From positions 62,001 through 126,000 of the forward strand of contig NZ_BDGT01000006.1 of the NCBI RefSeq assembly GCF_001748285.1: a stretch of DNA of 64,000 nt, given 5' to 3'. Of the stretch, positions 6,475 to 22,363 are shown one piece after another. This DNA is from Thermogemmatispora onikobensis (GTDB taxonomy: Bacteria; Chloroflexota; Ktedonobacteria; Ktedonobacterales; Ktedonobacteraceae). The translations under genes and the position numbers were made by a program. Position 1 is the stretch's first letter. Each line of letters starts with the position of its first letter. A model generated the notes under the pieces. It saw only the letters and a program-made list of their open reading frames with translations, had not been told where the DNA came from and made no database searches.

Positions 6475-6681
6475 GCCATTGGGAGCAAAAACATGATCTA
6501 AGCCGGAGTGCAAGATGACAGGTAGCAGGAATGGAGCCACAGACGGGAGCAAGTACCACGTTCCGTGCTTTCTGGGCCTCACCATTGCTATCCTCAGCGG
6601 ACAGGGCTAGACAGAACACGTTCTTGCGCCAGGCTTCGCCGCTCTAGCCCTTGCAGACACAGAAGAAGGAGGAGGAAAACC

Positions 6682-9600
6682 ATGCAGGAGAGAGACCTCC
6701 AGAAGAAGATATCTGCGCCTATGCTGCCCGCTAGAATTCTCCACCGCCAGCGTTTAGTGGCTTACCTGGAGGCAGCTACAGGGTGGACACAGAAGAAAGA
6801 TGGAAGCAAAGCTCGCTATCAGCTGGTGTCGCTGTGTGCACCCGCTGGCTATGGAAAAACAACCCTCCTGGCTGATTTCGCCTGCTCCACCTCGCTACCC
6901 TGCTGCTGGTATTTTCTAGAGCAGGAGGATGGCAATTGGGCTGTTTTTCTTCGTACTCTTCTGAAGAGCCTGCAAAACCTGTTTCCATCTCTATGTGAGC
7001 TTGAGCCTCTTTTCACGAATCTGCTGTGCGACGCAGGAGCTACTTCGGCTTATATCTACCAACCAGCCCTTGATGCTCTCGGTCAGGCACTGGCTGAAGT
7101 AGCCAGGCAGGGTTTTGCTATTTTCCTGTGTAACTATGCAGAAGTCAGTGCTCATGCCCCCCTGGCCCAGCTCCTTCACTACCTGCTCAAGAGACTGCCA
7201 CCATCGGCCACGCTCGTGTTAGAGAGCCGTGTCACCCTGGGCCCCTCGTTTGCACCGCTCTTTGCCCAGCAGCAAATCTGCACTATGAACAAAGCACTGT
7301 TGCGCTTCACTGCCCGGGAGATTGTCGAGCTGGCCCGTTTGCAGGGCCTAAGCGGACTGTCTGAAGAGGAAGCTGAACGGCTCGCGCACGACTTTGATGG
7401 CTGGATTACTGGCATACTGTTGGCAACCCGTTTGGGAGAGCAGGCTGTCCCTGATCCTGACGAGTTCGGAATACCTGAGCGGACGAAGCCATGGCACCAG
7501 CACGGGGCCCTCGCTGAACAGAGGCGTGCTCATCTCTTTTCGTATCTGCTAGACGAGGTTTTCTCTCATAAGCCAGAAATAAGAAATTTTATACGCCTGG
7601 CCTGTATATTGCAAGGAATGTACCCAGATCTATGTGATGCTCTGCTGGAGACGGACAAAGCCAGAGAATGGCTAGCCTATATGGAGCAGCAAGGATTATT
7701 CGTCACCTCGCATCTAGACCGCGGCCAGTTCCTCTATACCTGTCTTCCAGTGATCCGTGAACTTTTCCGTGAACAGCTGAGACTAAATGATCCAGAACGC
7801 TTCTATGCTCTCCACCGGCGTGCTGCCCAGCTGTGGCAGGACAGAGGGAACTACGAGCGGGCTATGTATCACGCCCTGGAAGCGCGGGCCTATGAGCTGG
7901 CAGGAGACATTCTGATCACTTATGCCAGGTTGCTGCTCCAGCAAGGGCAGATCGATATCATCATGCGCTGGCTTGACGCCCTTCCTGCTCGTTTGTTGGA
8001 GCAGCATCCTCAACTGCTGACGATACGAGTGCATGTCCTGCTAGAGAATGGACAGTGCCAGGAGGCACTCTCTCTTCTTGAGAGGGCTCTAGCTCTTCTA
8101 TCCGAGATTGAGAGCACAAGCACTCATGCATCGCAAAAGAAAGTAGCTTTCCTGGCTGAAATCCATCTTTTGCATAGCAGTGCATTGTTTCAGCAGGGAG
8201 AGTACGCTCAGGCTTTGCAGCTCTGCCAGCAGGTATTGCTGCTCTTGCCTGAGCAAGAAGGCGAGCTACGGGCTGCAGCAGAGATGCGCCTGGGGGTCTG
8301 TGCCTGCCTCCAAGGAGATTTTGCTGCCGGCATCACTTATCTCCAGCAGGCGCTGTGTACCTTGAGCCACCAGCCATCGCTCAAACTGGCCGTCGCAGTC
8401 CATAGCGCGCTGGCCAATACCTACTATCTCGTCAACAAACTTGATCTGGCTGAGCATCATCTCCTGTGCGCGATCGGCCCTTGTGAGCAAGCCCGCAATA
8501 TACGTGGCGTGATCAACAATCGTATTCTCCAGGGCCTGATCCTGGCGAGACGAGGAGCACTCGCCGAAGCGGAAGCTGTCCTGCAGCAGGCACTGGCTCT
8601 GGCACGCTCTACGCCGGGCTATCGCCGGGGGGAAGCCTATGCCCTTGGGAATCTTGGTTCGCTGGCACTTGTGCAAGGGCACAGTCGGCAGGCGCTCGCT
8701 TATTGTCAGGAGGCATTGGAGTTAGCCTGTCACTATGGCAATCGGAGCTTGTGTAACTCCATCTACTCGACCATGGCCCTGGCCTATCTTCTCCTGGGGG
8801 ATCAAATCAGCGCGCGGCATTTTGTGGAAGCGATCAGGATAGGGGGAAGCAGTGGAGCACAAGGTAGCTACGAGTGGGCCTGGAGCAGGCTGACCGCGGG
8901 CCTGGTCTACCTCTATCAGGGCTGCTACGAGCAAGCCTGTACGAGCCTGACGGAAGTCGTCGCCCTTTTGCGAAAGACGGACCTGCGGCAGGAACAGTTG
9001 CTGGCTATGTTGCGCCTGGCAGCCTGTCAGCTAGCTTGTCAACGCCTCAGCGAAGCCGTAGAGCTGCTGGTGGAAGTGGGAAAGTTGCTTGAGGAGAGTA
9101 GCACTGACAAACGGCTGGTGCTGGGGGAGATGGAGCGGCTGGTGGAGCTGCGCACGCTGGTCGAGCGCGAGCCGGAGCTGGAGCACCTGCGCACACTGCT
9201 CGACATAGAAAAGGTCCCTGAACAGGATGCCCCGGCCACACAGAGGGGAGCTGGCATAACGGTCATCGAGGAGCCGAGGGCCAAGTTAAAAATCCTGGCT
9301 TTTGGTGAGCCAGTGGTGCTGGTTGAAGGTCGGCCTATCAAGAAATGGCGCCGTATGAGTGCTATGGAATTGTTCTTTTTCCTCCTGGATAGTGACCGCC
9401 CTCTGAGCAGAGAGCAAGTGATTGCGGCGCTATGGCCCGAGGACTGCGAGCAAGTAGATAAGGCCTTCCATATGTCCCTCTACTACCTGCGCAAGGCGCT
9501 GGGCAAGGCGTGTGTTGTGTTTAGCGTCGATGGCTACAGCCTCAACTTGGCGGCCTGCTATAGAGGAAGCATCTGGTATGACGTCAGAGAGTTTCAAGAG

Positions 9601-10209
9601 AGATGGGCAGCGGCCAGACAGGCACTGACGCGGGGGGAAGAAGAGAACGCTCAGCAGGCATTGCTCAGAATGGTCGAACTCTACCGGGGTGACTATGGAA
9701 GACCGTTCTATAGCGACTGGTGCCGTCAGCGACGCGACGAGCTGTGCACTGCCTATCTGGAGGCCCTGTGCCAGCTAGCGCAGATCGCCTGGAATCGTCA
9801 AGACATGGAGGCATGCATGTATTACTGGCGTAAGGCATTGGCAGTGGATAACTGCATGGAGGAGGCACACTACGGCATCATGCTGTGCTATATGGCACAG
9901 GGCAAACGCAGTGCCGCGCTACGCCAGTACCAACTCTGCAAAAAGATTCTGCAGCAGGAGCTGTGCGTAAAGCCTGGATCATTGTTACAAGAGCTGTACC
10001 GGAGACTCAGCAGCACCGCCGAATCTGCTCAGATGAGACAGATGGCACCAGGCAAATTAAGCGGGCTCTCTGGCTTCCTCCAGAGCCAGGCAGGGGATAA
10101 CACTGACAAGGTATCCATACATAGGACGCCTGCGCAGGCGGAGAGGAAGATGGAGAGAGAATGGAGAGAGGAGGAGCAGTATGCTCCTGAAAGAGGGAAG
10201 GGACAGTGA
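6682..10209 (+). CDS. SARP/BTAD-type transcriptional activator with NTPase and TPRs
   Basis: A 1175-residue one-protein regulator. Residues 53-61 (APAGYGKTT) are a Walker A in an N-terminal MalT/STAND-like ATPase; about residues 330-850 are helical TPR-like repeats (YERAMYHALEA, EYAQALQLCQQ, LAEAEAVLQQALA); from ~870 a winged-helix SARP DNA-binding domain (MSAMELFFFLLDSDRPLSREQVIAALWPE, in part) precedes a BTAD domain (~960-1110, ending ALRQYQLCKKILQQEL). SARP regulators commonly activate secondary-metabolite genes; here the next genes downstream are the putative RiPP cluster, so pathway control is a reasonable inference. The ATG at 6682 follows AGGAGGAGGAAAACC. An upstream in-frame ATG (6565) would add an arginine-rich, implausible extension. 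Confidence 0.85.
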   Translation: MQERDLQKKISAPMLPARILHRQRLVAYLEAATGWTQKKDGSKARYQLVSLCAPAGYGKTTLLADFACSTSLPCCWYFLEQEDGNWAVFLRTLLKSLQNLFPSLCELEPLFTNLLCDAGATSAYIYQPALDALGQALAEVARQGFAIFLCNYAEVSAHAPLAQLLHYLLKRLPPSATLVLESRVTLGPSFAPLFAQQQICTMNKALLRFTAREIVELARLQGLSGLSEEEAERLAHDFDGWITGILLATRLGEQAVPDPDEFGIPERTKPWHQHGALAEQRRAHLFSYLLDEVFSHKPEIRNFIRLACILQGMYPDLCDALLETDKAREWLAYMEQQGLFVTSHLDRGQFLYTCLPVIRELFREQLRLNDPERFYALHRRAAQLWQDRGNYERAMYHALEARAYELAGDILITYARLLLQQGQIDIIMRWLDALPARLLEQHPQLLTIRVHVLLENGQCQEALSLLERALALLSEIESTSTHASQKKVAFLAEIHLLHSSALFQQGEYAQALQLCQQVLLLLPEQEGELRAAAEMRLGVCACLQGDFAAGITYLQQALCTLSHQPSLKLAVAVHSALANTYYLVNKLDLAEHHLLCAIGPCEQARNIRGVINNRILQGLILARRGALAEAEAVLQQALALARSTPGYRRGEAYALGNLGSLALVQGHSRQALAYCQEALELACHYGNRSLCNSIYSTMALAYLLLGDQISARHFVEAIRIGGSSGAQGSYEWAWSRLTAGLVYLYQGCYEQACTSLTEVVALLRKTDLRQEQLLAMLRLAACQLACQRLSEAVELLVEVGKLLEESSTDKRLVLGEMERLVELRTLVEREPELEHLRTLLDIEKVPEQDAPATQRGAGITVIEEPRAKLKILAFGEPVVLVEGRPIKKWRRMSAMELFFFLLDSDRPLSREQVIAALWPEDCEQVDKAFHMSLYYLRKALGKACVVFSVDGYSLNLAACYRGSIWYDVREFQERWAAARQALTRGEEENAQQALLRMVELYRGDYGRPFYSDWCRQRRDELCTAYLEALCQLAQIAWNRQDMEACMYYWRKALAVDNCMEEAHYGIMLCYMAQGKRSAALRQYQLCKKILQQELCVKPGSLLQELYRRLSSTAESAQMRQMAPGKLSGLSGFLQSQAGDNTDKVSIHRTPAQAERKMEREWREEEQYAPERGKGQ

Positions 10210-10567: not shown

Positions 10568-11026
10568 TTGAGGAAGGCGATAGTGGCACGGAAGGTGCCA
10601 GATGAGCGGAAGACCGGTACTGCTATCCTCTCGGCTCAGCAATTGCGCTGGCGCGAGAGCGTGGCCTTCGACGCGGATCTGACCGTGGTGTTTGAACCCA
10701 GGCAGCTCTATGAGTTTAACACCCGGCTGTGAAGCGATCCGACCTGGCTGAGGGCACTACAGGAGCGACCGGATGAGCTGCTGGCCGCCTTCGGGCTGGC
10801 GAAGGCAGTGGCCTTGCTGCCCAAGGACACGGTGCTGGAGAACCGCCGGCTTACCGCTGAGGAGCTGGCCGCCATGCGCCAGATCATGGCTGCCGCCAGC
10901 CAGCAGGAGCTGTTCCTTCAAGCTCAAAAGGCACTGGGAACAGCTCTCAAGGACGACGGCTATGGTTTGCCACTCCTTGTAAGCCCAACAATTATCGCAG
11001 TCATTATGATCACCCTGCTGTGGTGA
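10568..11026 (+). pseudogene. Precursor-peptide copy 1, interrupted by in-frame TGA
   Basis: First of four homologous genes. A TTG start five bases after AAGGAGG opens a frame of 152 codons aligning end to end with copies 2 and 3 (DERKTGTAILSAQQLRWRES; ERPDELLAAFGLAKAVALLP; TVLENRRLTAEELAAMRQIM). At 10730-10732 the tryptophan codon TGG of the other copies is TGA; the frame continues intact beyond it to KDDGYGLP and a hydrophobic tail (LLVSPTIIAVIMITLLW). One point mutation thus separates it from a full gene. It may be dead, read through at low level, or split. The preceding 350 bases (10210-10567) contain no other gene that I can see. Confidence 0.65.
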
Positions 11027-11059
11027 GATTCTCCCCAAAGAAAAAAAGGAGGCTGTTCA

Positions 11060-11512
11060 ATGAACGCGACAGAAGCACGGAAAGCTCTGGATGAGCGGAA
11101 GACCGGTACTGCTATCCTCTCGGCTCAGCAATTGCGCTGGCGCGAGAGCGTCGCCTTCGACACGGATCTGGCGGTGGCGTTTGAACCCGCGCAGCTCTAT
11201 GAGTTTAACGCCCGGCTGTGGAGCGATCCGACCTGGCTGAGGGCACTGCAGGAGCGACCGGATGAGCTGCTGGAAGCCTTCGGGCTGGCGAAGGCAGTGG
11301 CTTTGCTGCCCGAGGACACGGTGCTGGAGAACCGCCGGCTTACAGATGAGGAGCTGGCCGCCATGCGCCAGATCATGGGAATCGCTAACGAGCGGGGCCT
11401 GCTCTCCCAGGAGGCACTGGAGGGAATGCTTAACCAGGATGGCTATGGTCTGCCAGCAGTCGCAGTTCTGATTCTCCTCCTGGTTGTAGTTGTGTGCATT
11501 TGCGTTGCCTAA
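11060..11512 (+). CDS. Putative RiPP precursor, copy 2 (NHLP-like leader)
   Basis: 150 residues. The N-terminal ~120 residues are almost identical to copies 1 and 3, including at the DNA level, and contain 'LWSDPTWLRALQERPDELLEAFGL' (read in parts) then 'LPEDTVLENR', which has the shape of the nitrile-hydratase-like leader (NHLP) of proteusin-type precursors. After the conserved QDGYGLP the tail is unique and very hydrophobic (AVAVLILLLVVVVCICVA, two Cys). A conserved leader joined to a divergent core is the hallmark of RiPP families. Strong ribosome binding site (AAAAAAAGGAGG). The adjacent radical SAM enzyme is the likely modifier. An alternative is a small membrane-anchored protein family of unrelated function. 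Confidence 0.7.
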   Translation: MNATEARKALDERKTGTAILSAQQLRWRESVAFDTDLAVAFEPAQLYEFNARLWSDPTWLRALQERPDELLEAFGLAKAVALLPEDTVLENRRLTDEELAAMRQIMGIANERGLLSQEALEGMLNQDGYGLPAVAVLILLLVVVVCICVA

Positions 11513-11558
11513 GCATGCTAGCTCAGCAGCCTGACTTTCAATCGTGGAGAGGACTGAC

Positions 11559-12023
11559 ATGTTAAACGCGACAGAAGCACGGAAAGCTCTGGATGAGCGG
11601 AAGACCGGTACTGCCATCCTCTCGGCTCAGCAATTGCGCTGGCGCGAGAGCGTCGCCTTCGACACGGATCTGACCGTGACGTTTGAACCCATGCAGCTCT
11701 ATGAGTTTAACACCCGGCTGTGGAGCGATCCGACCCGGCTGAGGGCACTGCAGGAGCGACCGGACGAGCTGCTGGAAGCCTTCGGGCTGGCGAAGGCAGT
11801 GGCCTTGCTGCCCGAGGACACGGTGCTGGAGAACCGCCGGCTTACTGCTGAGGAGCTGGCCGCCATGCGCCAGATCCTGCTGGCCGCCAGTGAGCGGGGC
11901 CTGCTCTCTCAGGAAGCGCTAGAGCTGGCCCTCAGTGATGAGGGCTACGGCTTGCCTGCAGTTGCCGCTCTCGCTTTGGCAGTAGCCATTGCTGTTTATC
12001 TCTGGGTGTATCTCTGGGGATAG
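11559..12023 (+). CDS. Putative RiPP precursor, copy 3 (NHLP-like leader)
   Basis: 154 residues, starting MLNATEARKALDERKTGTA. It is near-identical to copy 2 through the leader, with the same SAQQLRWRESVAFDTDLT segment and 'LLEAFGLAKAVALLPEDT'. The region before the tail reads GLLSQEALELALSDEGYGLP and the tail AVAALALAVAIAVYLWVYLWG, aromatic-rich and different from the other copies. The ATG at 11559 has GGAGAGG seven bases upstream; a GTG at 11544 overlaps that ribosome binding site. A terminator-like hairpin follows at 12042-12082. Confidence 0.7.
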   Translation: MLNATEARKALDERKTGTAILSAQQLRWRESVAFDTDLTVTFEPMQLYEFNTRLWSDPTRLRALQERPDELLEAFGLAKAVALLPEDTVLENRRLTAEELAAMRQILLAASERGLLSQEALELALSDEGYGLPAVAALALAVAIAVYLWVYLWG

Positions 12024-12041
12024 GCTCCATTCCAACGAGCG

Positions 12042-12082
12042 AGGGACCGGTACAGTGCTGGTTGCCTGCCCCGGTCCCTTTT
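12042..12082 (+). terminator. Terminator or attenuator between precursor copies 3 and 4
   Basis: AGGGACCGG (12042-12050) pairs with CCGGTCCCT (12071-12079) followed by TTT, with a 20-base loop. Placed between the abundant precursor genes and the biosynthetic genes, it could partially terminate transcription and set the precursor-to-enzyme ratio. Confidence 0.5.
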
Positions 12083-12122
12083 GTGAAGTGGCCTGCTGTG
12101 GCGTTGGAATCATACCCACGGC

Positions 12123-12320
12123 ATGGACCTCGAGGAGAACCGCCGGCTTACCGCTGAGGAGCTGGCCGCCAGTGAGCGGGGCCTGCTCTCCCAGGAAGCG
12201 CTAGAGCTGGCCCTCAATGATGAGGGCTACGGTTTGCCTGCAGTTGCAGTTGTCTGCGTTGCGGTCACTGTTGTTACTTGCATGTCTCTGTTTATTTTTT
12301 TGTGGCTCACGGGAGCATAG
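12123..12320 (+). CDS. Short precursor-like copy 4 lacking most of the leader
   Basis: A 65-residue frame (MDLEENRRLTAEELAASERG...) homologous to the last part of copies 1-3. It lacks the first ~95 residues and has a further 7-residue internal deletion after 'EELAA'. It keeps LNDEGYGLP and has its own tail, AVAVVCVAVTVVTCMSLF plus IFLWLTGA, with two cysteines. No good ribosome binding site precedes the ATG. Either a decayed duplicate or a leaderless substrate acted on in trans. The intact, distinct tail argues against simple decay, but expression is uncertain. Confidence 0.45.
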   Translation: MDLEENRRLTAEELAASERGLLSQEALELALNDEGYGLPAVAVVCVAVTVVTCMSLFIFLWLTGA

Positions 12321-12375
12321 GAGTTGGTGTTGTCCTGTGAGCTTACCTCCGGCTGGAAATCTGAAGGAGGGAAGC

Positions 12376-13416
12376 ATGCTTCCAAGTCTTTTTTCGATAT
12401 TTCTAGACTACAAGTGTAATTTCTGGTGTGGCCACTGCAGCGTAGGAAGCAGCCCTCGCACAGTCATGCCCATGCCACGAGAGCTTCTCCTCAAGATTAT
12501 GACCGAGCTTCGGGAAGTGCCAACGGCCAAGGTGGTTGTTTTTACTGGCGGTGAGGCGACGTTGCGCAAGCAGCTCTTGCTCGAGGGGATCTCTCTCGCC
12601 AAAGCAGGTGGCTATGTGACGCGTGTGGTCAGCAATGGTGGATGGGCGACGACGCCAGAGCGTGCCCGCGCGATGGTTCGGGACCTCAAAAGCGCCGGTC
12701 TAGACGAGCTCAATACCAGCTATGACGATTTTCATGCTCCTTTTGCATCGATAGAATGCATTGTCAATCTGGTGCGAGCTGGTCTGGAAGAGGGGCTTCG
12801 GATTGGCCTGGGGGTGATCGTGGACAAGAACGCTACCTGGGATGCGGCAGCTGTGCGACGGGCCCTCAGCGAAGGGCTAGGGATGGAGATCGCCGAGATC
12901 GAAAAACGGGTGACAATTCTGGAGGACTATCCAACCCCTACTGGCTCAGGGGAACAGTTGGATGTGAACGGCCTGGATGCGGGAGACAAGCTCAACATGG
13001 GCTGTCCAGAAGTGCTCAAGACTGTCTCCCTGCACCCGAATGGTATGGTCAAGGCTTGCTGTGGGCATGCGATGTTCTACGCTCAGGATTTAACCTTGGG
13101 CAATCTGAACGAAGAGCGCCTGATTGATATTCTTACGCGAAGTCAGCAGAATCTCGTCTACTGGTGGCTTCATATGTTAGGTCCGAAGCGCATTCTTGAT
13201 AAGCTCGGCGTAGAGGGGACCTATACCAGCATCTGTCATGCCTGCCAGGCGCTGCTTGCTGACCATCGGCAGGCAATGCTGGAGTACTTGAAAGCCCACC
13301 GTGATGAGGTACTCCTGCAGGATGTTGTGCTTGGCGATAGCCTGAAGCGCGTTTCGACGATTGTCCTCAAGCGGAAAGAAGAGATTCTTGCCCAAATGAG
13401 AAGGCTGGAGTCATGA
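12376..13416 (+). CDS. Radical SAM/SPASM peptide-modifying enzyme
   Basis: 346 residues. The radical SAM [4Fe-4S] motif CxxxCxxC is at Cys14, Cys18 and Cys21 (KCNFWCGHC), followed by a glycine-rich SAM-binding 'FTGGEATL'. The C-terminal part has SPASM-like cysteines: Cys210 (MGCPEV), Cys228-Cys229 (KACCGH), then 'LTLGNLNEE' and Cys287/Cys290 (CHACQ), expected to bind auxiliary clusters. A 'YDDFHAPF' motif lies mid-protein. Its position between precursor genes and transporters points to modification of the precursor tails (thioether, C-C crosslink or epimerisation; chemistry not predictable). The start at 12376 has GAAGGAGGGAAGC upstream. The stop overlaps the next start as ATGA. Confidence 0.85.
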   Translation: MLPSLFSIFLDYKCNFWCGHCSVGSSPRTVMPMPRELLLKIMTELREVPTAKVVVFTGGEATLRKQLLLEGISLAKAGGYVTRVVSNGGWATTPERARAMVRDLKSAGLDELNTSYDDFHAPFASIECIVNLVRAGLEEGLRIGLGVIVDKNATWDAAAVRRALSEGLGMEIAEIEKRVTILEDYPTPTGSGEQLDVNGLDAGDKLNMGCPEVLKTVSLHPNGMVKACCGHAMFYAQDLTLGNLNEERLIDILTRSQQNLVYWWLHMLGPKRILDKLGVEGTYTSICHACQALLADHRQAMLEYLKAHRDEVLLQDVVLGDSLKRVSTIVLKRKEEILAQMRRLES

Positions 13417-14324
13417 GCACCATTGCATTAGAATCCGTCACGGCTGGCTATGGACAGTCACTCGTCCTCCACGAGATCAATCTGGCCTTCGATTCAGGTT
13501 TTCATGTGATCCTGGGAAGCAATGGAGCGGGCAAGACAACACTGTTCCGTGTCGGGGTGGGTATTCTCCCACCCCGCGCAGGCATAGTTTCTGTCCTGGG
13601 GTATGAACCGCATCGAGACAGTGAAGTCAAGCGTCTGATCGGCTACCTCCCGCATCGCCCTTCCCTCTCGGCAGCGCTCAGCGTGCGAGATAACCTGGAA
13701 TTCTGGGGGCAAGTGCTCCGGCTTCCTTCCGCCCAGCGGCGGTCACGGATCGACCAGGTGGTCGCTGATTTGGAACTGAGTGATCTCCTATCCAAGCCAG
13801 CAGCTTCCTTGAGTAGAGGCCAGGCGCAGCGGGTAGCTATTGCTCGTGCTCTGCTCGGCGCTCCACAGGTGCTCTTTCTGGACGAGCCGACGACGGGTCT
13901 CGATCCATTGGCAGCACGTTCCTTGCGCGAGCTACTCAAGGGGTTGGCTCGGGCAGACAAAACGATCATTTATTCAACACATAATCTCTATGAGGCAGCT
14001 GAGCTGGCTGATGATGTGACCTTGATTGCGGCTGGTCGGGTAGTAGATCGTGGCTCCGTAGAAGCGTTGCACCAGCGTCATGCTCGTGCGCAGCGAGTCT
14101 GTCTGACAGTCGAGGGAGATCCGCGAACCATCCTGAGCGACCTGGGGTATGAAGCGGTACCAGACAGGGAGCAGTGGATTGTAGATCTTTCGGACCGGGC
14201 GGAGCGCAGTCGCATCGTGGCAGCGCTGGTGCAGGCGGGACTTCCTGTCCTTGAGGTACGGGAGCTGGGCAGTCCTCTTGAGGCAGTCTATGAAGACCTG
14301 GAGAGCGGAGGTCAACGTGTCTGA
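13413..14324 (+). CDS. ABC transporter ATP-binding protein
   Basis: 303 residues with Walker A GSNGAGKTT, signature LSRGQAQR, Walker B VLFLDEPTTGLDP and an H-loop histidine in 'IIYSTHNLYEA'. The C-terminal ~80 residues form an accessory domain as in CcmA/ABC-2-type exporters. It overlaps the radical SAM gene by four bases and the following permease by eight, so translation is coupled and it forms one exporter with that permease. Likely substrate: the modified peptide or its protective efflux (inference). Confidence 0.9.
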   Translation: MSTIALESVTAGYGQSLVLHEINLAFDSGFHVILGSNGAGKTTLFRVGVGILPPRAGIVSVLGYEPHRDSEVKRLIGYLPHRPSLSAALSVRDNLEFWGQVLRLPSAQRRSRIDQVVADLELSDLLSKPAASLSRGQAQRVAIARALLGAPQVLFLDEPTTGLDPLAARSLRELLKGLARADKTIIYSTHNLYEAAELADDVTLIAAGRVVDRGSVEALHQRHARAQRVCLTVEGDPRTILSDLGYEAVPDREQWIVDLSDRAERSRIVAALVQAGLPVLEVRELGSPLEAVYEDLESGGQRV

Positions 14325-15186
14325 GTTAGAGCACGAGGTTTTCTCTGACGAGGATGCCGATCTTCTGGAGGCATCCAGTGGCCTGGATCGGGTGCTGCAG
14401 CTTACCGGGGCGTTATTATGGCGTGGGCGGCGCGAGCAGGGCGTGCGCTTGCTGGTGATTCCTCTCGCATTTGCTCTTTTTTTCCTCCTGCTTTGCCTGG
14501 TCACTCTGTATTTCCCCGGGCTGCTAACACCGCTTTCACGTTTCGCTATTCAGGCGCAGGCCCAGGCCTACTTTGGAGCGACGGTGCATGGCAATGCGGG
14601 CTTGGCTATGGCTTTGCTCCTCATTCAGGGGCCCTATCTCATTGCCCTGTTCGCGGCCTTCATGGGTGCGACCCTGGCTCAAAACCTCGTTGGAACTGAG
14701 GCCGCTCGTGGCGGGCTAGAGCTGCTGCTGAGTTCCGCCTATCGCGTGCAAGAAGTCTTTGTGGCCTTCCTTCTGGCTTCCTTTGTCCTGACCATCTGCC
14801 AATGGGCGATTCTTGCCCTAGGAACGCTCGGCGCAGCGGCGACTGTTCTGGCCCTACTGCGAATCGCTTTCACGCTGCAGGCCCGCTACATTGCCCTTGC
14901 CGTTGCCGTGCCATTGCCTATTGCCCTCTGGGCAAACCTGGGGGCCCTCTTTCTGGGTATGGCTTTTCCGCGGTTAACCCAGATCCGTACTGGCAGCACG
15001 ACCAACTTGATGCAATTGCTCGCTGCACTGCCAGCCCTGGCGCTGCTGATCCTGATTAATATTCGCCCGGATCTCAATGCCGGATTAGTTGCAGCGATTG
15101 CCCTGGGAGTAGGTCTTGCCGGATCTCTCGTCAGCGCCGTGCTGCTGCGGGTCCGTTTTCGACCAGAGTTCGTGCTTGAGGCCTGA
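14317..15186 (+). CDS. ABC-2-type permease
   Basis: 289 residues with about six transmembrane helices (LLVIPLAFALFFLLLCL, LLIQGPYLIALFAAFMGA, VAFLLASFVLTICQWAIL and so on), a cytosolic N-terminus of about 45 residues rich in Glu/Asp, and the long second loop of ABC-2 exporters. The GTG at 14317 is chosen because GGAGG lies just upstream and overlaps the ATPase stop by eight bases; the long upstream open frame is inside the ATPase gene. Partner of the preceding ATPase. About 275 bases without a gene follow. Confidence 0.8.
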   Translation: MSELEHEVFSDEDADLLEASSGLDRVLQLTGALLWRGRREQGVRLLVIPLAFALFFLLLCLVTLYFPGLLTPLSRFAIQAQAQAYFGATVHGNAGLAMALLLIQGPYLIALFAAFMGATLAQNLVGTEAARGGLELLLSSAYRVQEVFVAFLLASFVLTICQWAILALGTLGAAATVLALLRIAFTLQARYIALAVAVPLPIALWANLGALFLGMAFPRLTQIRTGSTTNLMQLLAALPALALLILINIRPDLNAGLVAAIALGVGLAGSLVSAVLLRVRFRPEFVLEA

Positions 15187-15462
15187 GTGAGAAAGGTGAT
15201 GGGGCAGGAAGCGACTGCTCCCGGCTCGTGCCACAACGAGGGAGAGCATCGTGGTTCCCCCCATGCCCTCGCGCGGGGTGCCGGTGCTTCTCTGAGGAAC
15301 TGCTGGAGAGGCACCTGGCTGGAACAACCGCGATGCTCTCTGGTGACAGGATTTCTTCAGCAGTGAGATGTTCCGCTGTCCTACCTGGCAAGGGCGATAT
15401 GGACCCACGGACAGCGAAAACTTGCAGCTATGGTGAATTTGAGAGAGGGGAAGAAAGAAACA

Positions 15463-15696
15463 ATGCTGTTACCGCTGTCAAGTCTGATGACCCATACGCA
15501 AAGTACGGCCCCCGTCGGCTTGCTATGGCCTCTCTTGGCTTTGGACCTCATTCTGATTGCGATCGCGCTAGTGGACCTGATCCGGCGAGATCCGCGCACC
15601 GTGCGTGGCAAGAAGATCATCTGGGCTCTGATCATCCTTTTCATCAGTACCCTCGGCCCTATCTGCTACTTTGTCCTGGGGCGTAAGGAGGTCTAA
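15463..15696 (+). CDS. PLDc_N-domain small membrane protein (YxlE-like)
   Basis: About 77 residues with two hydrophobic helices (LLWPLLALDLILIAIALVDL and IIWALIILFISTLGPICYFV) and the closing 'YFVLGRKE', the recognisable end of the PLDc_N (phospholipase D-nuclease N-terminal) family. In Bacillus subtilis the same order, yxlE (PLDc_N), yxlF (ATPase) and yxlG (permease), occurs in the sigY operon linked to bacteriocin-type immunity. Here it directly precedes an ATPase and a permease, so a self-immunity role is inferred. An alternative ATG at 15430 lacks a ribosome binding site. Confidence 0.7.
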   Translation: MLLPLSSLMTHTQSTAPVGLLWPLLALDLILIAIALVDLIRRDPRTVRGKKIIWALIILFISTLGPICYFVLGRKEV

Positions 15697-15697
15697 G

Positions 15698-16663
15698 ATG
15701 GCCGCTCCTGGCGAGGCGATCATCCGGTGTGAAGGTCTGCGCAAGACCTATGGATCGGTTGAAGCTCTCAAAGGGTTAAATTTGACGGTTTATCCTCACA
15801 GCATCTTTGGCCTCCTCGGCCCCAATGGCGCAGGTAAGAGCACTGCCATCAAGCTGCTCACGCGCCAGATCAGGCCCACCAGTGGTCAGGCCTGGGTGGC
15901 TGGAGCGTCAATCACTAGCGCGAAAGCTGATGTGCGAGCTCGCATCGGCTATCTCAGTGAGCAGCCTGCTCTCTACACGTGGATGAGTGGCCAGGAATTC
16001 CTGGATTTCACTGGCGAACTGTTTGGGTTGAGTGCTAGAGACCGACGGCGCCGACGTGACGAGCTGCTTGAGCTGGTCGGCCTGACCGCTGCTGCCAGGC
16101 GCAGAATTGGCAGCTACTCCAATGGGATGCGCCAGCGTCTGGGCATCGCTCAGGCGTTAGTGAATCGTCCGGAGGTCCTTTTTCTAGATGAACCTGTGTC
16201 TGCGCTGGACCCAATTGGTCGCAAGGAAATCCTGGAGCTTTTTCAACGCCTCAAAGGCGAAGCCACTGTCTTCTTCTCCTCGCACGTGCTGGCCGACGTC
16301 GATCGCATCTGCGACGCTGTGGCAGTCCTCAATCGCGGCGAGCTGCTCGTGCAGGCTTCGATCGCTGAACTGAAGGAGCGCTACGCTCCGCCGATGATCT
16401 CGGTTGAGCTGGAATGTGCGACTGAAGATCTCCAACGTCTGCTGGCCCGGGAACCCTGGGTCCAGCACATCACTGTCAGTGGAAGCAGAGCGACTATCTT
16501 GGTGAGAGACCTGGCAACCGCTAAACGTGCTTTGCCAGCCCTACTGGTCAATGCTGGTTTGCCGCTGCTGCGCTATGAGGTGACGCAGCCCACGCTTGAA
16601 GATGTGTTCCTTCGCCTTGTGGGGAAAGTAGACAATCTGTCAGGAACTGGGGAGGGAGCATGA
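15698..16663 (+). CDS. ABC transporter ATP-binding protein (YxlF-like)
   Basis: 321 residues with Walker A GPNGAGKST, signature YSNGMRQRL (the variant typical of ABC-2 exporters), Walker B VLFLDEPVSALDP and 'VFFSSHVLADVDRI'. It opens with MAAPGEAIIRCEGLRKTYG and ends in an accessory alpha/beta domain closing in 'TLEDVFLRLVG'. The ATG at 15698 follows AAGGAGG, one base after the stop of the PLDc_N gene. It overlaps the following permease by four bases (ATGA). Probably part of the export or immunity arm of the RiPP locus. Confidence 0.9.
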   Translation: MAAPGEAIIRCEGLRKTYGSVEALKGLNLTVYPHSIFGLLGPNGAGKSTAIKLLTRQIRPTSGQAWVAGASITSAKADVRARIGYLSEQPALYTWMSGQEFLDFTGELFGLSARDRRRRRDELLELVGLTAAARRRIGSYSNGMRQRLGIAQALVNRPEVLFLDEPVSALDPIGRKEILELFQRLKGEATVFFSSHVLADVDRICDAVAVLNRGELLVQASIAELKERYAPPMISVELECATEDLQRLLAREPWVQHITVSGSRATILVRDLATAKRALPALLVNAGLPLLRYEVTQPTLEDVFLRLVGKVDNLSGTGEGA

Positions 16664-17436
16664 ACCTCTATGCCTTCTGGCCCATGCTCAAGAAGGAATT
16701 TCGTGAGCAAAGCCGTACCTACCGTTTCGTGATCGCTGTCATCGTTTTTCTCTTGCTTGGGATCTCTGCCCCGATTATCACCTGGCTGACCCCTGATCTC
16801 CTGAAGAACCTGGGGAACGGCGCCACGATTATTCTGCCACCGCAGACTGCCACTGACGCGCTCAACACTTATTTGAAGAATATGGTGCAACTGCCGGCCC
16901 TGGCTCTTATCCTACTGGCTATGGGGGCCATCGCTGATGAGCGCAGTCGAGGAACGGCAGTGACTATCTTGACGAAGCCTGTTCCGCGCCCTATCTTTGT
17001 GCTGGCAAAGTTCCTGGCCTATGAGGGAACGCTCATCATCAGTTTGACGCTCGCTGCCGTTGGGGCCTACTATTATACCGGTCAGCTCTTTCGCCCGCTT
17101 CCTGTCGGCCCCTTTCTGATACTGAACATCGCTCTTCTGGCTTTCTTGACACTTACCCTGGCCCTAACGATCCTGTGCAGCGCATTAGTGCGCAACAGCA
17201 TTGCCGCTGGGGGAATGGCGTTCGTTGGCTTCCTTGTCCTCGTGGTAGTGCCCAATCTCAACGCCTCGATCAGCAGGGTTTTGCCATCGGTACTCTTCCG
17301 CCCCGAGCGTGTGGCCCAGTTGGTAGCTGGCACAGCGTCGTTGGGAGAGACGCTCTGGCCGCTGCTCGTCGGTCTGGGTCTGGCCGGCCTCCTTGTGGTG
17401 CTCACATGTCTGGTGTATCACTCCCAGGAGATCTAA
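16660..17436 (+). CDS. ABC-2-type permease (YxlG/NosY-like)
   Basis: 258 residues, about six helices (FVIAVIVFLLLGISAPII, LALILLAMGAIADE, LIISLTLAAVGAYYY, FLTLTLALTILCSALV, AFVGFLVLVVVPNL, LVGLGLAGLLVVLTCLVY). The segment 'DERSRGTAVTILTKPVPR' is characteristic of NosY/ABC-2 permeases. It starts inside the stop codon of the ATPase, so the pair is translationally coupled. It is the last gene of the apparent operon; about 520 bases without a clear gene separate it from the convergent cas3. Confidence 0.85.
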   Translation: MNLYAFWPMLKKEFREQSRTYRFVIAVIVFLLLGISAPIITWLTPDLLKNLGNGATIILPPQTATDALNTYLKNMVQLPALALILLAMGAIADERSRGTAVTILTKPVPRPIFVLAKFLAYEGTLIISLTLAAVGAYYYTGQLFRPLPVGPFLILNIALLAFLTLTLALTILCSALVRNSIAAGGMAFVGFLVLVVVPNLNASISRVLPSVLFRPERVAQLVAGTASLGETLWPLLVGLGLAGLLVVLTCLVYHSQEI

Positions 17437-17959: not shown

Positions 17960-20404
17960 TCAGGAGCCAGAGCGATCAATTGCGTCTTGTGGCAACACCA
18001 GACCTAGCTCCGGATCGTACGGGGCCTCCACCATCGGGATCGATGACCCCGACCGGGCCCGGGCTCTCAGCGGCAGGTGCCGGACCTGATGACGCTGGAC
18101 CAGCGCCTGATAGGTTCGATAGCTGAGTGGTACACACAGCTGGGTGGCTTCCAGCAGCTCGCCCGCTTCCAGCAAGTCCCGATAGTCCTGCTCCAACCTG
18201 CCAGGAAGGACCTCCATGCCATCAAAGAGCTGAGCAAACGCTTCTTCTCCGTGCGCATGCGCCTGAAACGGTCGCAGCTGTTTCAGCAGCCAGCTCGCCA
18301 ATTCGAACTGCTCCCCGTAACTGCGTTGCCAGGGGTCTGCCAGCTCGGGGTCCTCATAGATGGCATCCAGCCAGTGCTGAAGAGCCACTTCATCGATCAC
18401 CTGAGACTGATACTCTTCCAGTTTGCTCAATGTCCGGGCGACCAGACCAGGGAGATAGATCCCCTGTCCATCCTGCGGGGAGCGGAAAACATGCACGGGA
18501 ACGATCCCCTTGCTGCCGGCACGGTTGACGCGCCCGAAGCGTTGGACCAGGGCCTCCAGCGGGGCGGGATCAGTGTAGATTGTATCGACATCCAGGTTGA
18601 GACTGACCTCGACCACCTGGGTGGCAACGAGTGCTAACGCCTGCCGTGCCGCTCCTGCCCCGGTGCGCTCCAGAATCTGCGCTTCCCGGACCTGGCGATC
18701 ACGGGCGGTGAAGCGGCTGTGCAGCAGCAAGACCTGTTCCGCTGCCAGCACCTGGCGCAGCTGCTGGTAGAGCCGCTGGGCGCGTCCCACAGTGTTACAG
18801 CAGGCCATGACCATGTTCCCCTGCTTGACCTGAGCAGCAACCCGCTTCCAGCCCTCTTCCAACAAGTCCCCATCCAGCAGGTGGAGTTGATGGCGCCTCC
18901 AGCGCTGCAACAGCTCTGCTTCTGCCACGATTGGCTCAGGCAGCGCCAGTGCCTCAATGAGTCGTTGTCGTACCAGGGAAGGAAGCGTGGCCGACATGAT
19001 CAGCATGCGAGCTCCATAGCGCTGCTGCAGATACTGCAGCAATGCCACGATCAGGGCAAGCCGCTCTGCATCGTAGGCGTGGATTTCATCGAAGATAAAG
19101 AGGGCCTGCGTATAGTCTGTCAACATTCCCTCAAAGCCCTTGATGCGATAGAGCACTTTGAGCAGCTGATAAGGGCTGAGCACTTTGAGTGGATAGGCAT
19201 GCAGGCGATTCAAATTGAGAGACCAACGGGCTGCTTCGCGCGCTGTGGCCGGACCCATCTCTGTGGCCAGTAGCTGCTGATAGAGGGCCTGGAAGGCATG
19301 CCCGTGCTGGAGGCCGACCGTTCCGGCTCCAAAGTAGGACGGGTGACTGAGCCGCTGGTACATGGCATTGATGCTGGCTTGATAGGGGAGCACATAGAAC
19401 AGGCGGGGCACTGGCTGTGCCCCGTCCCCCAGGGCCCAGTAAAGTGCCGCCTCCGTTTTGCCACTTCCAGTCGGCGCGATCAGCAGCGTCGATTGCCGTG
19501 CCCGCTCCGCGCAGGCTCGCTGGTAGGCATAGGGCTGTGGATCAGCTCGCCCTGGCTGACTCCACTGTCTGGCTACCAGCAGCGGACGTAGACGTCTTTC
19601 AAGGTGCTGCCAGGATTCTGGTATCCCTGCCGGAATCCGTGCCAGGTGCGCTGAGGCAGCATGATCGGCCGTCGTCAACAAGCCACGCAACAGCACCAGC
19701 AACGGTGCCAGATGGGCCCTGTGCGGACGCCGCCACTCTTCCAGGCTCTCGAGATAGAGATCCAGCCAGGTCCGAATACGCTCTGGACCAGCACGACAGA
19801 CCATCTGCAGCGCCTCTTCTTTCTCTGGGAGGGCGACAGCTTCGACACCGGCGCTCTCCAATCCCAGCAGGCTGATCCAGGGAGCGGAGCAGATGCGCAG
19901 CCAGCGCCACAGTCCTTCGACAACTGGCGGCTCCAGTTGGTTGACCATTTCCGCAAGAACCTCAGTCTGCCCACAGTACGCTGTGATGATCTCCTCCGCC
20001 TCCTTATGATGGGAAACGATAGTGGCCACCAGCCACTGCTGCTCCTCGTGGGAGCATGCGTGGGCGATCCAATCCAGGAAAGCCAGAGAGAGGACCTCAT
20101 GGCGATAGGGCCAGCTCTGATCTGGATGGCGCAACATCTGCTGAAACCCACGAGCAGCCTTCCCCAGATCGTGCAGGAAGCAGGCCCAGAACAGGCAATG
20201 CCAGAGGCGGGGAGCGTGCAGTAAGACAGCCAGCTGCGGCCGCAGCCGCACCAGATCGGCCAGGCGCTCCAGGACCAGCCAGGTGTGAGCAGCCAGGCTC
20301 TCACCCACTGGCGGTGATCCTCCTTCTCTCTCGTGAGGGCTTCTCTTTGCCCAGAGATCGCAATCTCCCTGATTCAGCCAGTCAGGCCAAGGGGAAGGCT
20401 GCAT
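17960..20404 (-). CDS. cas3: Cas3 helicase-nuclease (type I-B CRISPR)
   Basis: 814 residues with the fused layout HD nuclease then SF2 helicase. HD ligands: His40, His78-Asp79 (FLHDLGKAARGFQ), His102 (YRHEVLSLAF) and 'IVSHHK'. Helicase: Walker A IAPTGSGKTEAAL (~residue 312), DEIH box (LFIFDEIHAYD, ~437), motif III MSATLP, and a C-terminal 'QRFGRVNRAG'. It unwinds and degrades DNA recruited by Cascade. The ATG at 20404 is preferred because GGAGAG lies just upstream; it overlaps the end of cas5 by about 22 bases. It is the last gene of the minus-strand effector operon. Confidence 0.92.
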   Translation of the reverse strand: MQPSPWPDWLNQGDCDLWAKRSPHEREGGSPPVGESLAAHTWLVLERLADLVRLRPQLAVLLHAPRLWHCLFWACFLHDLGKAARGFQQMLRHPDQSWPYRHEVLSLAFLDWIAHACSHEEQQWLVATIVSHHKEAEEIITAYCGQTEVLAEMVNQLEPPVVEGLWRWLRICSAPWISLLGLESAGVEAVALPEKEEALQMVCRAGPERIRTWLDLYLESLEEWRRPHRAHLAPLLVLLRGLLTTADHAASAHLARIPAGIPESWQHLERRLRPLLVARQWSQPGRADPQPYAYQRACAERARQSTLLIAPTGSGKTEAALYWALGDGAQPVPRLFYVLPYQASINAMYQRLSHPSYFGAGTVGLQHGHAFQALYQQLLATEMGPATAREAARWSLNLNRLHAYPLKVLSPYQLLKVLYRIKGFEGMLTDYTQALFIFDEIHAYDAERLALIVALLQYLQQRYGARMLIMSATLPSLVRQRLIEALALPEPIVAEAELLQRWRRHQLHLLDGDLLEEGWKRVAAQVKQGNMVMACCNTVGRAQRLYQQLRQVLAAEQVLLLHSRFTARDRQVREAQILERTGAGAARQALALVATQVVEVSLNLDVDTIYTDPAPLEALVQRFGRVNRAGSKGIVPVHVFRSPQDGQGIYLPGLVARTLSKLEEYQSQVIDEVALQHWLDAIYEDPELADPWQRSYGEQFELASWLLKQLRPFQAHAHGEEAFAQLFDGMEVLPGRLEQDYRDLLEAGELLEATQLCVPLSYRTYQALVQRHQVRHLPLRARARSGSSIPMVEAPYDPELGLVLPQDAIDRSGS

Positions 20405-21143
20405 ACGGCGTCTCTCCAAAGGTGTGAAACATCAGGCCGAGGTGCATTCCCGCGATCACAGGGGAGGTTGGATCAACCCAGAAGCGGGATGACTGCCCTG
20501 TTCGCTGCTGCCGTTGCTCCTCCTCAAACCAGAACTCTCGGCTACTGGCGCGTCCTTCCAGCACCAGATAGTGGGAGAAGGTGGGAGCACGTTTGCGCTC
20601 ATAATCAAGATAGCGCGGCAGTAGTTCCACATGTCCGCGTCCCAGGAGCCGGACCATGTCGCGTGGCAGCAACGTGTGCTCAAAGTAGGCTTCCTGAGCC
20701 TGCACCAGCTCGATTTGCTCCACCGAGGTATAGGTGAACAGGTCCTGGGACCGCCCCAGCACCACCGCATAGCGAGGCCGACGGAATGCCTCCAGCCAGT
20801 CCGGGCGCGTGAGATAGAGCGTCAGTCTCGGGCGGAACAGAATTTCTCGCTTAAATGGCTGCAGCCCTCCCGATATCGCTTGTGGGAAGGAAGTTCCTTT
20901 CAGCTTGCCGCGAGCCTCCGTCAACAAAATGGTATGTTCCAGGTCAAAGAACGTGGCCTCGCTCGTAAAGCGGTAGGCAAAGGCGACACTCTCAGGCGAG
21001 ATCAACTCTCCAAGTGCGCTGCAGATATGCCCATAGATCGTCGCTGGAGGAGGCATACGAAACGTCGGCTGGATGCCATGCATGAAATGCGGCAGGCGGA
21101 ACGAGGTGGTGATGCCCTCCGCCTGGATCTTGAGCACACGCAT
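20382..21143 (-). CDS. cas5: Cas5 (type I-B)
   Basis: 253 residues with the Cas5 N-terminal signature: MRVLKIQAEGITTSFRLPHF followed by 'PPPATIYGHICSALGE', the glycine/proline-rich RAMP stretch that binds the crRNA 5' handle. The C-terminus carries 'MHLGLMFHTFGETPYAAFPL'. Belongs to the Cas5t group accompanying Cst1/Cst2-type I-B systems. The ATG has GGAGGAAT eight bases upstream. It overlaps cas3 and is separated from cas7 by 145 bases that hold no gene. Expected to sit at the foot of the Cascade backbone. Confidence 0.88.
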   Translation of the reverse strand: MRVLKIQAEGITTSFRLPHFMHGIQPTFRMPPPATIYGHICSALGELISPESVAFAYRFTSEATFFDLEHTILLTEARGKLKGTSFPQAISGGLQPFKREILFRPRLTLYLTRPDWLEAFRRPRYAVVLGRSQDLFTYTSVEQIELVQAQEAYFEHTLLPRDMVRLLGRGHVELLPRYLDYERKRAPTFSHYLVLEGRASSREFWFEEEQRQQRTGQSSRFWVDPTSPVIAGMHLGLMFHTFGETPYAAFPLA

Positions 21144-21288
21144 AGGGATTCCTCCGTGATTACCTGCAAGAAGGCTGGGCCCCAGGCCGCTTATGACTGC
21201 TCATCTCCAGGCCTCCACCGCTCCATCGTGAGCGAGGAGTGGATGGGAGAAGTCAGAGAGAGACTGAGCCATCGCCTGGACGCCAGCT

Positions 21289-22362
21289 CTACTCGAACCA
21301 GAAGGAGTTTGCGGGCTGAGCCAGGTCATCTCCAAAGGCACGAAATGCCTCGCGCGGATGGCGGATCACGTGCGCAAGATCCAGGCTGGCCAGATCTTGT
21401 TCTATCTCTTCACGCTGCTCATCCAGATAGCCACGCACCCAACCGACGTAGAGCGGCGAGAGAATCTCGGCGCGCATGACCGTGAGGGTCTCCCGCAGTG
21501 CCTCCCGTTTGATCTGGGGAACGCCTCCTCTGGCTCCGATCACGTGTCCAAAGAGATGATTGCCGCCGCGTGTCACCGCCAGCAGGCAGAGGACAGGCGC
21601 CACATCGGTGTAATGAATCGCCAGTTTGGCGCCCCCTTCGAGCAGCGCCAGGGCTTCAAACAAGGCCCGGATTCGCTGGATGCGCTCCGGCAGCGGTAAA
21701 CGATACGCTTTTTCTTGCTCTAGATGTTCGAGCTGCAATTCTTGTGCCTCTTTTATCCTGGGCTCGTCGAGATGGCGATAGCCAGCTTTATTGCGATAGG
21801 AAAAGGTACCGCAGGCGTGCAGGTCGAGGGAGAACAGCCCCTGGAGGGTCGTTCGATAGAGCTGATGTTCGAATGGGACGGGGTCTCCCTCATGGCGAGC
21901 CATCACCCCGAAATCTGTCGTGATCTTGACGGGAGCGATCGAAACAAGCGTGCTCACACGAAAAGGCGAGCTGCGTGTGACTGGCTCCACAGTGCTGGTG
22001 ACTGACTCCTGTTCTGCTGTGCCACCGCCACCACGTGTCTCTCTGCTCCCTCTCTTCGTAGGAGCACGCATATAGCCAAACAAGTCATCATCCCACCAGC
22101 GCAAAGGATTGCTATCAGTATAGGCGATCTTCTCTTCACGAATCACCGGCGCTGCCTTCCAGCCAGGGACCCGCCGCTCTGCTGTGGTGCGTACCCAATA
22201 GCGAAAAGCTTGGGCAGACACGTAGGGGAAGGCCTTGCCGTCGGGAGTAAGAATCATCTTGACGCCAGCAGTATTGTCGACTCGCTCGCCGGGGATACTC
22301 CCAAGATTATTTAACGCCGACGCTGGTGCATCCAGCAAGAAGAGACCGGTCACAAAGGCCAT
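21289..22362 (-). CDS. cas7: Cas7 / DevR-family (Cst2) Cascade backbone
   Basis: 357 residues. The start 'MAFVTGLFLLDAPASALNNL' and then 'VSAQAFRYWVRTT' are typical of the Cas7/Cst2/DevR family that polymerises along crRNA. A 'LFSLDLHACGTFSYRNKAGYRHLD' region (read in parts) and a C-terminal helical segment follow. The ATG at 22362 is one base from the cas8 stop and sits after GGAGGAGGAAT, giving tight coupling. A longer upstream frame (to 22500) is only overlap with cas8. The linker near residues 95-115 is glycine/arginine-rich (TKRGSRETRGGGGT), a possible disordered insert. Confidence 0.88.
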   Translation of the reverse strand: MAFVTGLFLLDAPASALNNLGSIPGERVDNTAGVKMILTPDGKAFPYVSAQAFRYWVRTTAERRVPGWKAAPVIREEKIAYTDSNPLRWWDDDLFGYMRAPTKRGSRETRGGGGTAEQESVTSTVEPVTRSSPFRVSTLVSIAPVKITTDFGVMARHEGDPVPFEHQLYRTTLQGLFSLDLHACGTFSYRNKAGYRHLDEPRIKEAQELQLEHLEQEKAYRLPLPERIQRIRALFEALALLEGGAKLAIHYTDVAPVLCLLAVTRGGNHLFGHVIGARGGVPQIKREALRETLTVMRAEILSPLYVGWVRGYLDEQREEIEQDLASLDLAHVIRHPREAFRAFGDDLAQPANSFWFE

Positions 22363-22363
22363 G

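What the first reader, a model, noticed from the sequence alone, without database searches (positions are those of the whole stretch)
10568..17436. Putative new RiPP locus: tandem precursors with identical leaders and hypervariable membrane-helix-like tails
Seen: three to four tandem genes share a near-identical ~120-residue N-terminal region, a strict D-[DE]-G-Y-G-L-P junction and then unrelated hydrophobic tails (for example AVAVLILLLVVVVCICVA against AVAALALAVAIAVYLWVYLWG). The next gene is a radical SAM/SPASM enzyme, followed by two ABC exporters. Known: conserved leader plus divergent core beside radical SAM enzymes defines RiPP families, and the leader has an NHLP-like outline ('LLEAFGL...LPEDT'). 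Inference: the tails are cores, perhaps made into membrane-inserting peptides. I do not recall a described class with this GYGLP junction and Val/Ile/Leu-rich core.
Basis: partly seen in the sequence, partly recalled or inferred. Interest (0 to 1): 0.92.

Follow-up and report, generated by a model that had tools for sequence, protein, structure and literature searches.

The report
Epimerase-linked hydrophobic peptide cluster, likely RiPP
A heat-loving soil bacterium carries a small gene cluster whose enzyme resembles a known one that flips amino acids to their mirror-image form, and whose peptide genes end in greasy tails that the enzyme probably converts into membrane-attacking peptides; similar enzyme-plus-greasy-peptide pairs turn up in unrelated bacteria and in an archaeon.

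Summary
The repeats are real, with corrections. In this strain only copies 2 and 3 are intact; copy 1 has a stop in its leader and copy 4 is a 65-aa fragment. Copy 2 breaks the "strict" junction (QDGYGLP). The tails differ between paralogues but are conserved between species (2/83 versus 48/492 codons changed, tail versus leader), so they are four distinct conserved products, not hypervariable. The adjacent radical SAM enzyme is EpeE/YydG-like: the only solved relatives by sequence, and the nine best by fold, are EpeE. It keeps the C-x3-C-x2-C motif, the Cys223 hydrogen donor and auxiliary-cluster cysteines. It scores 115 bits against a cutoff of 300, and Asp210 is not kept. Two cores lack Cys, arguing against a sactipeptide; the leader matches no NHLP model. 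A 44%-identical archaeal enzyme (Halocatena plasmid) sits beside a precursor with a related leader start and a Val/Ala-rich tail. Beside 12 of 13 related enzymes lies an Ala/Val/Ile/Asn-rich precursor; control radical SAM loci had none. Best reading: an EpeE-type epimerase installs D-residues in Val/Ile/Ala-rich tails, giving membrane-active peptides handled by two ABC systems. Epimerisation and activity are inferred. New variant of a known kind; neither canonical epipeptide nor proteusin.

The parts
10568..11026 (+). Precursor copy 1 (TTG start after a GGAGG-type site), interrupted by an in-frame stop at 10730-10732; tail LLVSPTIIAVIMITLLW at 10973-11023
   Evidence: intact orthologues in L019 and L020 with an identical tail
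11060..11512 (+). Precursor copy 2, 150 aa, intact; junction QDGYGLP; tail AVAVLILLLVVVVCICVA at 11456-11509
11562..12023 (+). Precursor copy 3, 153 aa (TTG start), intact; junction DEGYGLP; tail AVAALALAVAIAVYLWVYLWG at 11958-12020
12123..12320 (+). Precursor copy 4, leader-truncated 65-aa ORF; tail AVAVVCVAVTVVTCMSLFIFLWLTGA at 12240-12317
   Evidence: full-length 158-aa orthologues in L019, L020 and L021
12376..13416 (+). EpeE/YydG-like radical SAM/SPASM enzyme, 346 aa, AAGGAGG ribosome site; C14/C18/C21, C210, C228-C229 (C229 = EpeE Cys223), C287/C290
13413..14324 (+). DrrA-type ABC ATPase, overlaps the enzyme gene (ATGA)
14318..15186 (+). ABC-2-like permease (GTG start overlapping the ATPase gene); weak Pfam match only
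15430..15696 (+). 88-aa membrane protein with a PLDc_N domain; candidate immunity or accessory protein (inferred)
   Evidence: E 5.2e-12
15671..16663 (+). Second DrrA-type ABC ATPase
16660..17436 (+). Second ABC-2 permease
6565..10209 (+). Large regulator (NTPase/MalT-like TPR/BTAD), directly upstream here and in three related species; candidate pathway regulator (inferred)

Best explanation
The locus makes ribosomal peptides. Each precursor has a leader of about 130 residues and a 17-26-residue Val/Ile/Leu/Ala-rich core after the GYGLP junction. The EpeE-like radical SAM enzyme binds the precursors, abstracts a C-alpha hydrogen from core residues (Val/Ile by analogy with EpeE) and returns a hydrogen from Cys229, turning L- into D-residues. 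The leader is then cut near LP|A by an unidentified protease. One or both ABC systems export the peptides or protect the producer, and the epimerised hydrophobic peptides act on membranes of competing microbes. Shown here: gene anatomy, the enzyme's nearest relatives and conserved catalytic residues, conservation of each core, and recurrence of the enzyme-plus-hydrophobic-core pairing. Inferred: the reaction, the cleavage site, export or immunity, and membrane activity.
For: TIGR04078 (YydG epimerase) is the best family at 115.7 bits, the next 37.7. EpeE entries are the only PDB sequence hits (E about 1e-23). A fold search with a moderate model (pLDDT 61.7) puts nine EpeE chains first (E 4e-14 to 5e-13; next 3e-9). 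Invariant across 13 relatives: C210, C228, C229, C287, C290; in EpeE the second Cys of that CC pair is Cys223, the proposed hydrogen donor. Cores of copies 1 and 3 have no Cys, so thioether formation cannot be the shared step. Cores change less than leaders between species (2/83 versus 48/492 codons, Fisher p 0.03). The Halocatena enzyme (44% identical) has an adjacent precursor with a V/A-rich tail after DDYPGP and a leader start alignable to ours (32.5% over 40 aa; BLASTP E 1e-4 in a 15-protein set; hhalign E 0.004). Neighbours of 13 EpeE-like enzymes score 12-16 for the best A/V/I/N 18-mer, against 8-11 for 14 control radical SAM loci (p 4e-6). EpeX itself needs its epimerised Val/Ile residues to permeabilise membranes.
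Against: The enzyme is far below the YydG equivalog cutoff (300 bits), and EpeE Asp210 is not kept; the loop between C210 and C228 is two residues longer. No protease gene lies in the locus. Two of four precursors are damaged in this strain. The tails also look like plain transmembrane segments. The A/V/I/N measure was chosen after seeing sequences, and one of the 13 (Rhizobium) scored through a methyltransferase, not a precursor. The hhalign probability for leader homology is only 8.7%.
Confidence: 0.66

Rival explanations
1. RiPP locus, but the enzyme does another radical reaction on Val/Ile/Leu (for example cyclopropylglycine formation as by TvgB, or desaturation) rather than epimerisation.
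For: Radical SAM enzymes that act on Val side chains exist (PMC9062424). Asp210 of EpeE is not kept. The enzyme is below the equivalog cutoff.
Against: Nearest relative by sequence and by fold is EpeE; the TigE entry ranks 17th (E 1e-5). The hydrogen-donor Cys is invariant in 13 relatives; an epimerase of this kind needs it.
Confidence: 0.15
2. Sactipeptide-type locus: the enzyme makes Cys-to-C-alpha thioethers in the tails.
For: Copies 2 and 4 have two Cys each in the tail. SPASM enzymes include many sactisynthases.
Against: Cores 1 and 3, with the same leader, have no Cys. The enzyme is not near sactisynthase models.
Confidence: 0.05
3. The ~150-aa proteins are tail-anchored membrane proteins, and the radical SAM enzyme acts on something else.
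For: C-terminal hydrophobic stretches of helix length; membrane-transport genes are adjacent.
Against: One conserved N-part with four different, individually conserved tails; A/V/I/N-rich precursors beside related enzymes in Archaea, Streptomyces, Thermus and others, several with Asn-alternating cores that are unlikely as ordinary membrane anchors.
Confidence: 0.1
4. A decaying, no longer functional remnant of a RiPP locus in this strain.
For: Copy 1 interrupted and copy 4 truncated.
Against: Copies 2 and 3, the enzyme and all transport genes are open; the enzyme is 99-100% identical between species while leaders diverge.
Confidence: 0.1

Closest known systems
Epipeptide locus epeXEPAB (yydFGHIJ) of Bacillus subtilis
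   Same: EpeE-type radical SAM epimerase as nearest relative, hydrogen-donor Cys and auxiliary-cluster Cys kept, Val/Ile in the core, ABC-2 transporter genes next door
   Different: Leader about 130 aa instead of 32; three or four precursor genes; core almost wholly hydrophobic; no EpeP protease; two ABC systems plus PLDc_N; enzyme below the YydG cutoff and without Asp210
Proteusins (polytheonamide, aeronamide, landornamide)
   Same: Long leader; Val/Ala/Ile-rich core expected to be epimerised. Relatives elsewhere have Asn-alternating cores and an amide-type methyltransferase, like polytheonamide with PoyE
   Different: No NHLP leader match; enzyme of the EpeE and not the PoyD type (auxiliary cluster; no significant homology between the two types according to PMC8326336)
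SDP cannibalism toxin with SdpI immunity
   Same: Hydrophobic peptide toxin; SdpI genes stand beside related enzymes in Thermus, Klebsiella and T. aurantia; five related precursors match TIGR04032 weakly at the core
   Different: No SdpI in this genome; TIGR04032 scores 11-14 bits against a 99-bit cutoff; the sdpABC-sdpIR locus as described in PMC13343845 has no radical SAM enzyme
Halocatena salina plasmid locus (L053), not described in the library searched
   Same: 44% identical enzyme, leader start alignable, acidic junction (DDYPGP), Val/Ala-rich tail
   Different: One precursor, longer core (about 40 aa), DUF3784 gene instead of ABC genes

Membership tests
Epipeptides (EpeX/EpeE) | Enzyme reaches the YydG equivalog cutoff (TIGR04078, 300 bits) | tested here: not met
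   115.7 bits
Epipeptides (EpeX/EpeE) | Radical SAM C-x3-C-x2-C, hydrogen-donor Cys223 and auxiliary-cluster Cys | tested here: met
   C14/C18/C21, C229, C210, C228, C287, C290 by alignment
Epipeptides (EpeX/EpeE) | Asp210 | tested here: not met
   CPEVLKT replaces CPGYD; loop two residues longer
Epipeptides (EpeX/EpeE) | Short precursor: 17-residue product after a 32-residue leader | tested here: not met
   150-158 aa, leader about 132 aa
Epipeptides (EpeX/EpeE) | EpeP-type membrane protease in the operon | tested here: not met
   No protease domain among genes 12376-17436
Epipeptides (EpeX/EpeE) | D-Val/D-allo-Ile in the product | not testable with these tools
   needs chemistry
Proteusins | NHLP (nitrile-hydratase-like) leader | tested here: not met
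   No TIGR03793 hit in the precursors or in G000; TIGR04351 12.4 bits against 65; structure model too poor to decide by fold (pLDDT 48)
Proteusins | PoyD-type epimerase without auxiliary cluster | tested here: not met
   EpeE type with SPASM cysteines
Sactipeptides | Cys donors in every core | tested here: not met
   copies 1 and 3 have no Cys in the tail
SDP/SdpC toxins | TIGR04032 match and SdpI immunity | tested here: not met
   No match for the window precursors; no SdpI in the genome

The most novel reading that the evidence does not exclude
The locus belongs to an undescribed RiPP class spanning Bacteria and Archaea: EpeE-type enzymes that epimerise long Val/Ala/Asn-rich cores into beta-helical or channel-like membrane peptides, reached independently of the polytheonamide (PoyD) route. 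In Asn-rich members a HemK/PrmC-like enzyme N-methylates Asn, and SdpI-like or ABC proteins give immunity.
Probability: 0.4. Interest if true: 0.9.

Novelty: new variant of a known kind. Interest (0 to 1): 0.72.

Why it matters
Two kinds of radical SAM peptide epimerase are well known (PoyD-type in proteusins and EpeE-type in epipeptides), and PMC8326336 raises their evolutionary relation as an open question. Loci in which EpeE-type enzymes stand beside long, polytheonamide-like hydrophobic cores, in hosts from Thermogemmatispora and Thermus to a haloarchaeon, would bridge the two and offer many testable D-residue peptides, some with enzymes from thermophiles.

Tried and rejected
Sactipeptide: rejected, two cores lack Cys. 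NHLP/Nif11 leader: no model match. AlphaFold of the precursor: pLDDT 48, not used for a fold search. Phage link: no match in 50,697 phage records. Matches in IMG/VR contigs: L095, L096, L099 and L100 carry precursors (L095, L096 and L100 are close relatives of one another); L102 and L103 are other radical SAM enzymes. The partial TIGR04078/A2 hits in other Chloroflexota lack the CCG motif and hydrophobic neighbours and were used as controls; G259 (L058) has a different small leader-like ORF and no hydrophobic core. Gene conversion of leaders within genomes was looked at: clear only in isolate HOG59 (95-99.6% within, against 90-93% to orthologues in the window strain and T. aurantia), not in the window strain, so no general claim.

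Full report
WHAT IS THERE. The window lies in a Thermogemmatispora-type genome (G000; nearest named records T. aurantia, T. tikiterensis and Thermogemmatispora sp. HOG59). Four tandem precursor genes run from 10568 to 12320. Copies 1-3 share a 300-nt block at 92-96% identity. Copies 2 (11060-11512, 150 aa) and 3 (11562-12023, 153 aa) are intact. Copy 1 has an in-frame stop at 10730-10732, and copy 4 keeps only 65 residues; intact orthologues of both exist. Each ends in GYGLP followed by a hydrophobic tail: LLVSPTIIAVIMITLLW, AVAVLILLLVVVVCICVA, AVAALALAVAIAVYLWVYLWG, AVAVVCVAVTVVTCMSLFIFLWLTGA. Copy 2 reads QDGYGLP, so the junction is [DQ][DE]GYGLP. Reverse-translated D[DE]GYGLP occurs in the genome only here (3 hits, 0 in the control). 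The radical SAM gene (12376-13416) has a clear AAGGAGG site, and its stop overlaps the first ABC gene. Next come a permease, an 88-aa PLDc_N membrane protein, a second ABC ATPase and a second permease. A large BTAD/TPR regulator lies directly upstream here and in the three relatives.

CORES ARE CONSERVED, NOT HYPERVARIABLE. The tails differ between paralogues but hardly between species. Over one species pair per paralogue, 2 of 83 core codons and 48 of 492 leader codons changed the amino acid (Fisher p 0.03), and both core changes are Ile/Val swaps. This looks like four separate, retained products.

THE ENZYME. The best NCBIfam model is TIGR04078, the YydG (EpeE) peptide epimerase, at 115.7 bits; the next family has 37.7. 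The curated cutoff is 300, so it is not an equivalog. The only PDB sequences found are EpeE entries (8ai1-8ai6, E about 1e-23). A moderate AlphaFold model (pLDDT 61.7) also finds EpeE in places 1-9, then BlsE, SuiB, SkfB and TigE at far weaker E-values. The radical SAM cysteines, C210, C228-C229 and C287/C290 are kept; C210, C228-C229, C287 and C290 are invariant in 13 relatives. EpeE Cys223, the proposed hydrogen donor (PMC8326336, PMC5682303), aligns with C229. Asp210 of EpeE (the 8ai6 mutant) is not kept, and the loop is two residues longer. Cores 1 and 3 contain no Cys, and no reactive side chain is shared by all four cores; the residues common to all are mainly Val, Ile, Leu and Ala. Epimerisation needs no side-chain chemistry, so it fits; thioether formation does not.

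DISTRIBUTION. Precursor and enzyme occur in the same 4 of 47 class genomes, all one genus; the precursor profile finds the same 4 in 400 phylum genomes. Two other species of the genus lack both. In plasmids, a Halocatena salina (archaeon) enzyme is 43.6% identical over 99% and is sister to ours in a tree (support 0.999). The gene just upstream encodes 177 aa ending NDDYPGPAACSVAAACVAVVAVAVYNTAGAAVNVVAAVAVETYVGVT. A 40-residue stretch near its N-terminus aligns with our leaders at 32.5% (BLASTP E 1.4e-4 in a 15-protein set; hhalign E 0.004 but probability 8.7%). This is suggestive, not proof.

A WIDER PATTERN. Around 13 EpeE-like enzymes (Thermogemmatispora, Halocatena, Streptomyces, Thermus, a second T. 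aurantia locus, Lactococcus, Eleftheria, E. mundtii, Klebsiella sp., Collinsella, two IMG/VR contigs, Rhizobium) the best A/V/I/N 18-mer of a neighbouring same-strand ORF scores 12-16; around 14 control radical SAM genes it scores 8-11 (Mann-Whitney p 4e-6). In 12 of the 13 that ORF is the neighbouring precursor-like gene; in Rhizobium it is a methyltransferase. The measure was devised after seeing sequences, so the p-value is optimistic. Several relatives (Thermus, Klebsiella, Collinsella, T. aurantia second locus) have Asn-rich, partly alternating cores such as NALALANANAVANANALANANIMANVN, together with a methyltransferase; the Klebsiella one matches HemK2/PrmC glutamine-amide methyltransferases. 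Polytheonamide has such Asn, N-methylated by PoyE (PMC11285071). SdpI-family genes stand next to three of these enzymes. The window locus has none of this and instead carries two ABC systems; the EpeAB transporter gives immunity in B. subtilis (PMC13343845), though LiaIH was the stronger resistance factor against added peptide (PMC7026026).

MECHANISM. Most likely the enzyme epimerises core Val/Ile (perhaps Ala) residues by C-alpha hydrogen abstraction and hydrogen return from Cys229. The leader is removed near LP|A, and the peptides act on membranes, as the epimerised EpeX does (PMC7026026, PMC8326336). Shown: anatomy, homology, catalytic residues, core conservation, recurrent pairing. Inferred: reaction, cleavage, transport role and activity. 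No protease was found in the locus.

VERDICT. A real, probably functional RiPP locus: not a canonical epipeptide (cutoff, precursor size, Asp210 and protease not met), not a proteusin (leader and enzyme type not met), not a sactipeptide. It is a new variant of EpeE-type epimerised RiPPs. No description of this arrangement was found in ten full-text searches, but the library lacks most subscription journals, so priority is not proved.

Noticed in passing
L049:5291-8798 (T. aurantia, second locus): EpeE-like enzyme with a Tat-like-signal precursor whose core is GANIAIAANAGGIVNAGAVVNAVVYANAAVATLAVVVLAVVPPAVS, plus a methyltransferase and SdpI.
   Followed up: partly
L060:2859-6078 (Klebsiella sp. 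PL-2018 plasmid pmk4): SdpI, precursor with Asn-alternating core (NALALANANAVANANALANANIMANVN), EpeE-like enzyme, HemK2/PrmC-like methyltransferase: polytheonamide-like cores with an unrelated type of epimerase.
   Followed up: partly
L055:2599-6074 (Thermus aquaticus pTA14) and L061:2427-6188 (Collinsella aerofaciens): Same set: Asn-rich core precursor, EpeE-like enzyme, SdpI or DUF1648 gene, methyltransferase. In Thermus the precursor has a Tat-like and lipobox-like start. The Collinsella precursor C-terminus matches DUF5969.
   Followed up: partly
L053:7249-8850 and L099:5965-8023: Core segments ACSVAAACVAVVAVAV (archaeal plasmid) and ACSVAAVCVAFIAVAV (IMG/VR contig) lie in an 18-residue match of 78% identity although the leaders differ.
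   Followed up: partly
L095, L096, L100 (IMG/VR contigs): Enzyme followed by a Tat-like-signal precursor with an internal V/A-rich segment and a C-terminal follower region of about 90 aa; whether these contigs are prophages or chromosome was not checked.
   Followed up: partly
L061:706-861: 51-aa ORF MDSKTGPVPVVVNFAAVVDNVVAAVYDAVVAAYAFWYSADNDGTGTSAAQN beside a second radical SAM gene; possibly another hydrophobic-core precursor.
   Followed up: no
window 17960-23920, - strand: CRISPR-Cas genes (Cas3-like helicase and further cas-like genes, read from the sequence) start right after the RiPP locus.
   Followed up: no
window 4529-5338, - strand: ORF with an ImmA-like stretch (AHKLGHYFLHF), possibly a decayed metallopeptidase or regulator.
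   Followed up: no
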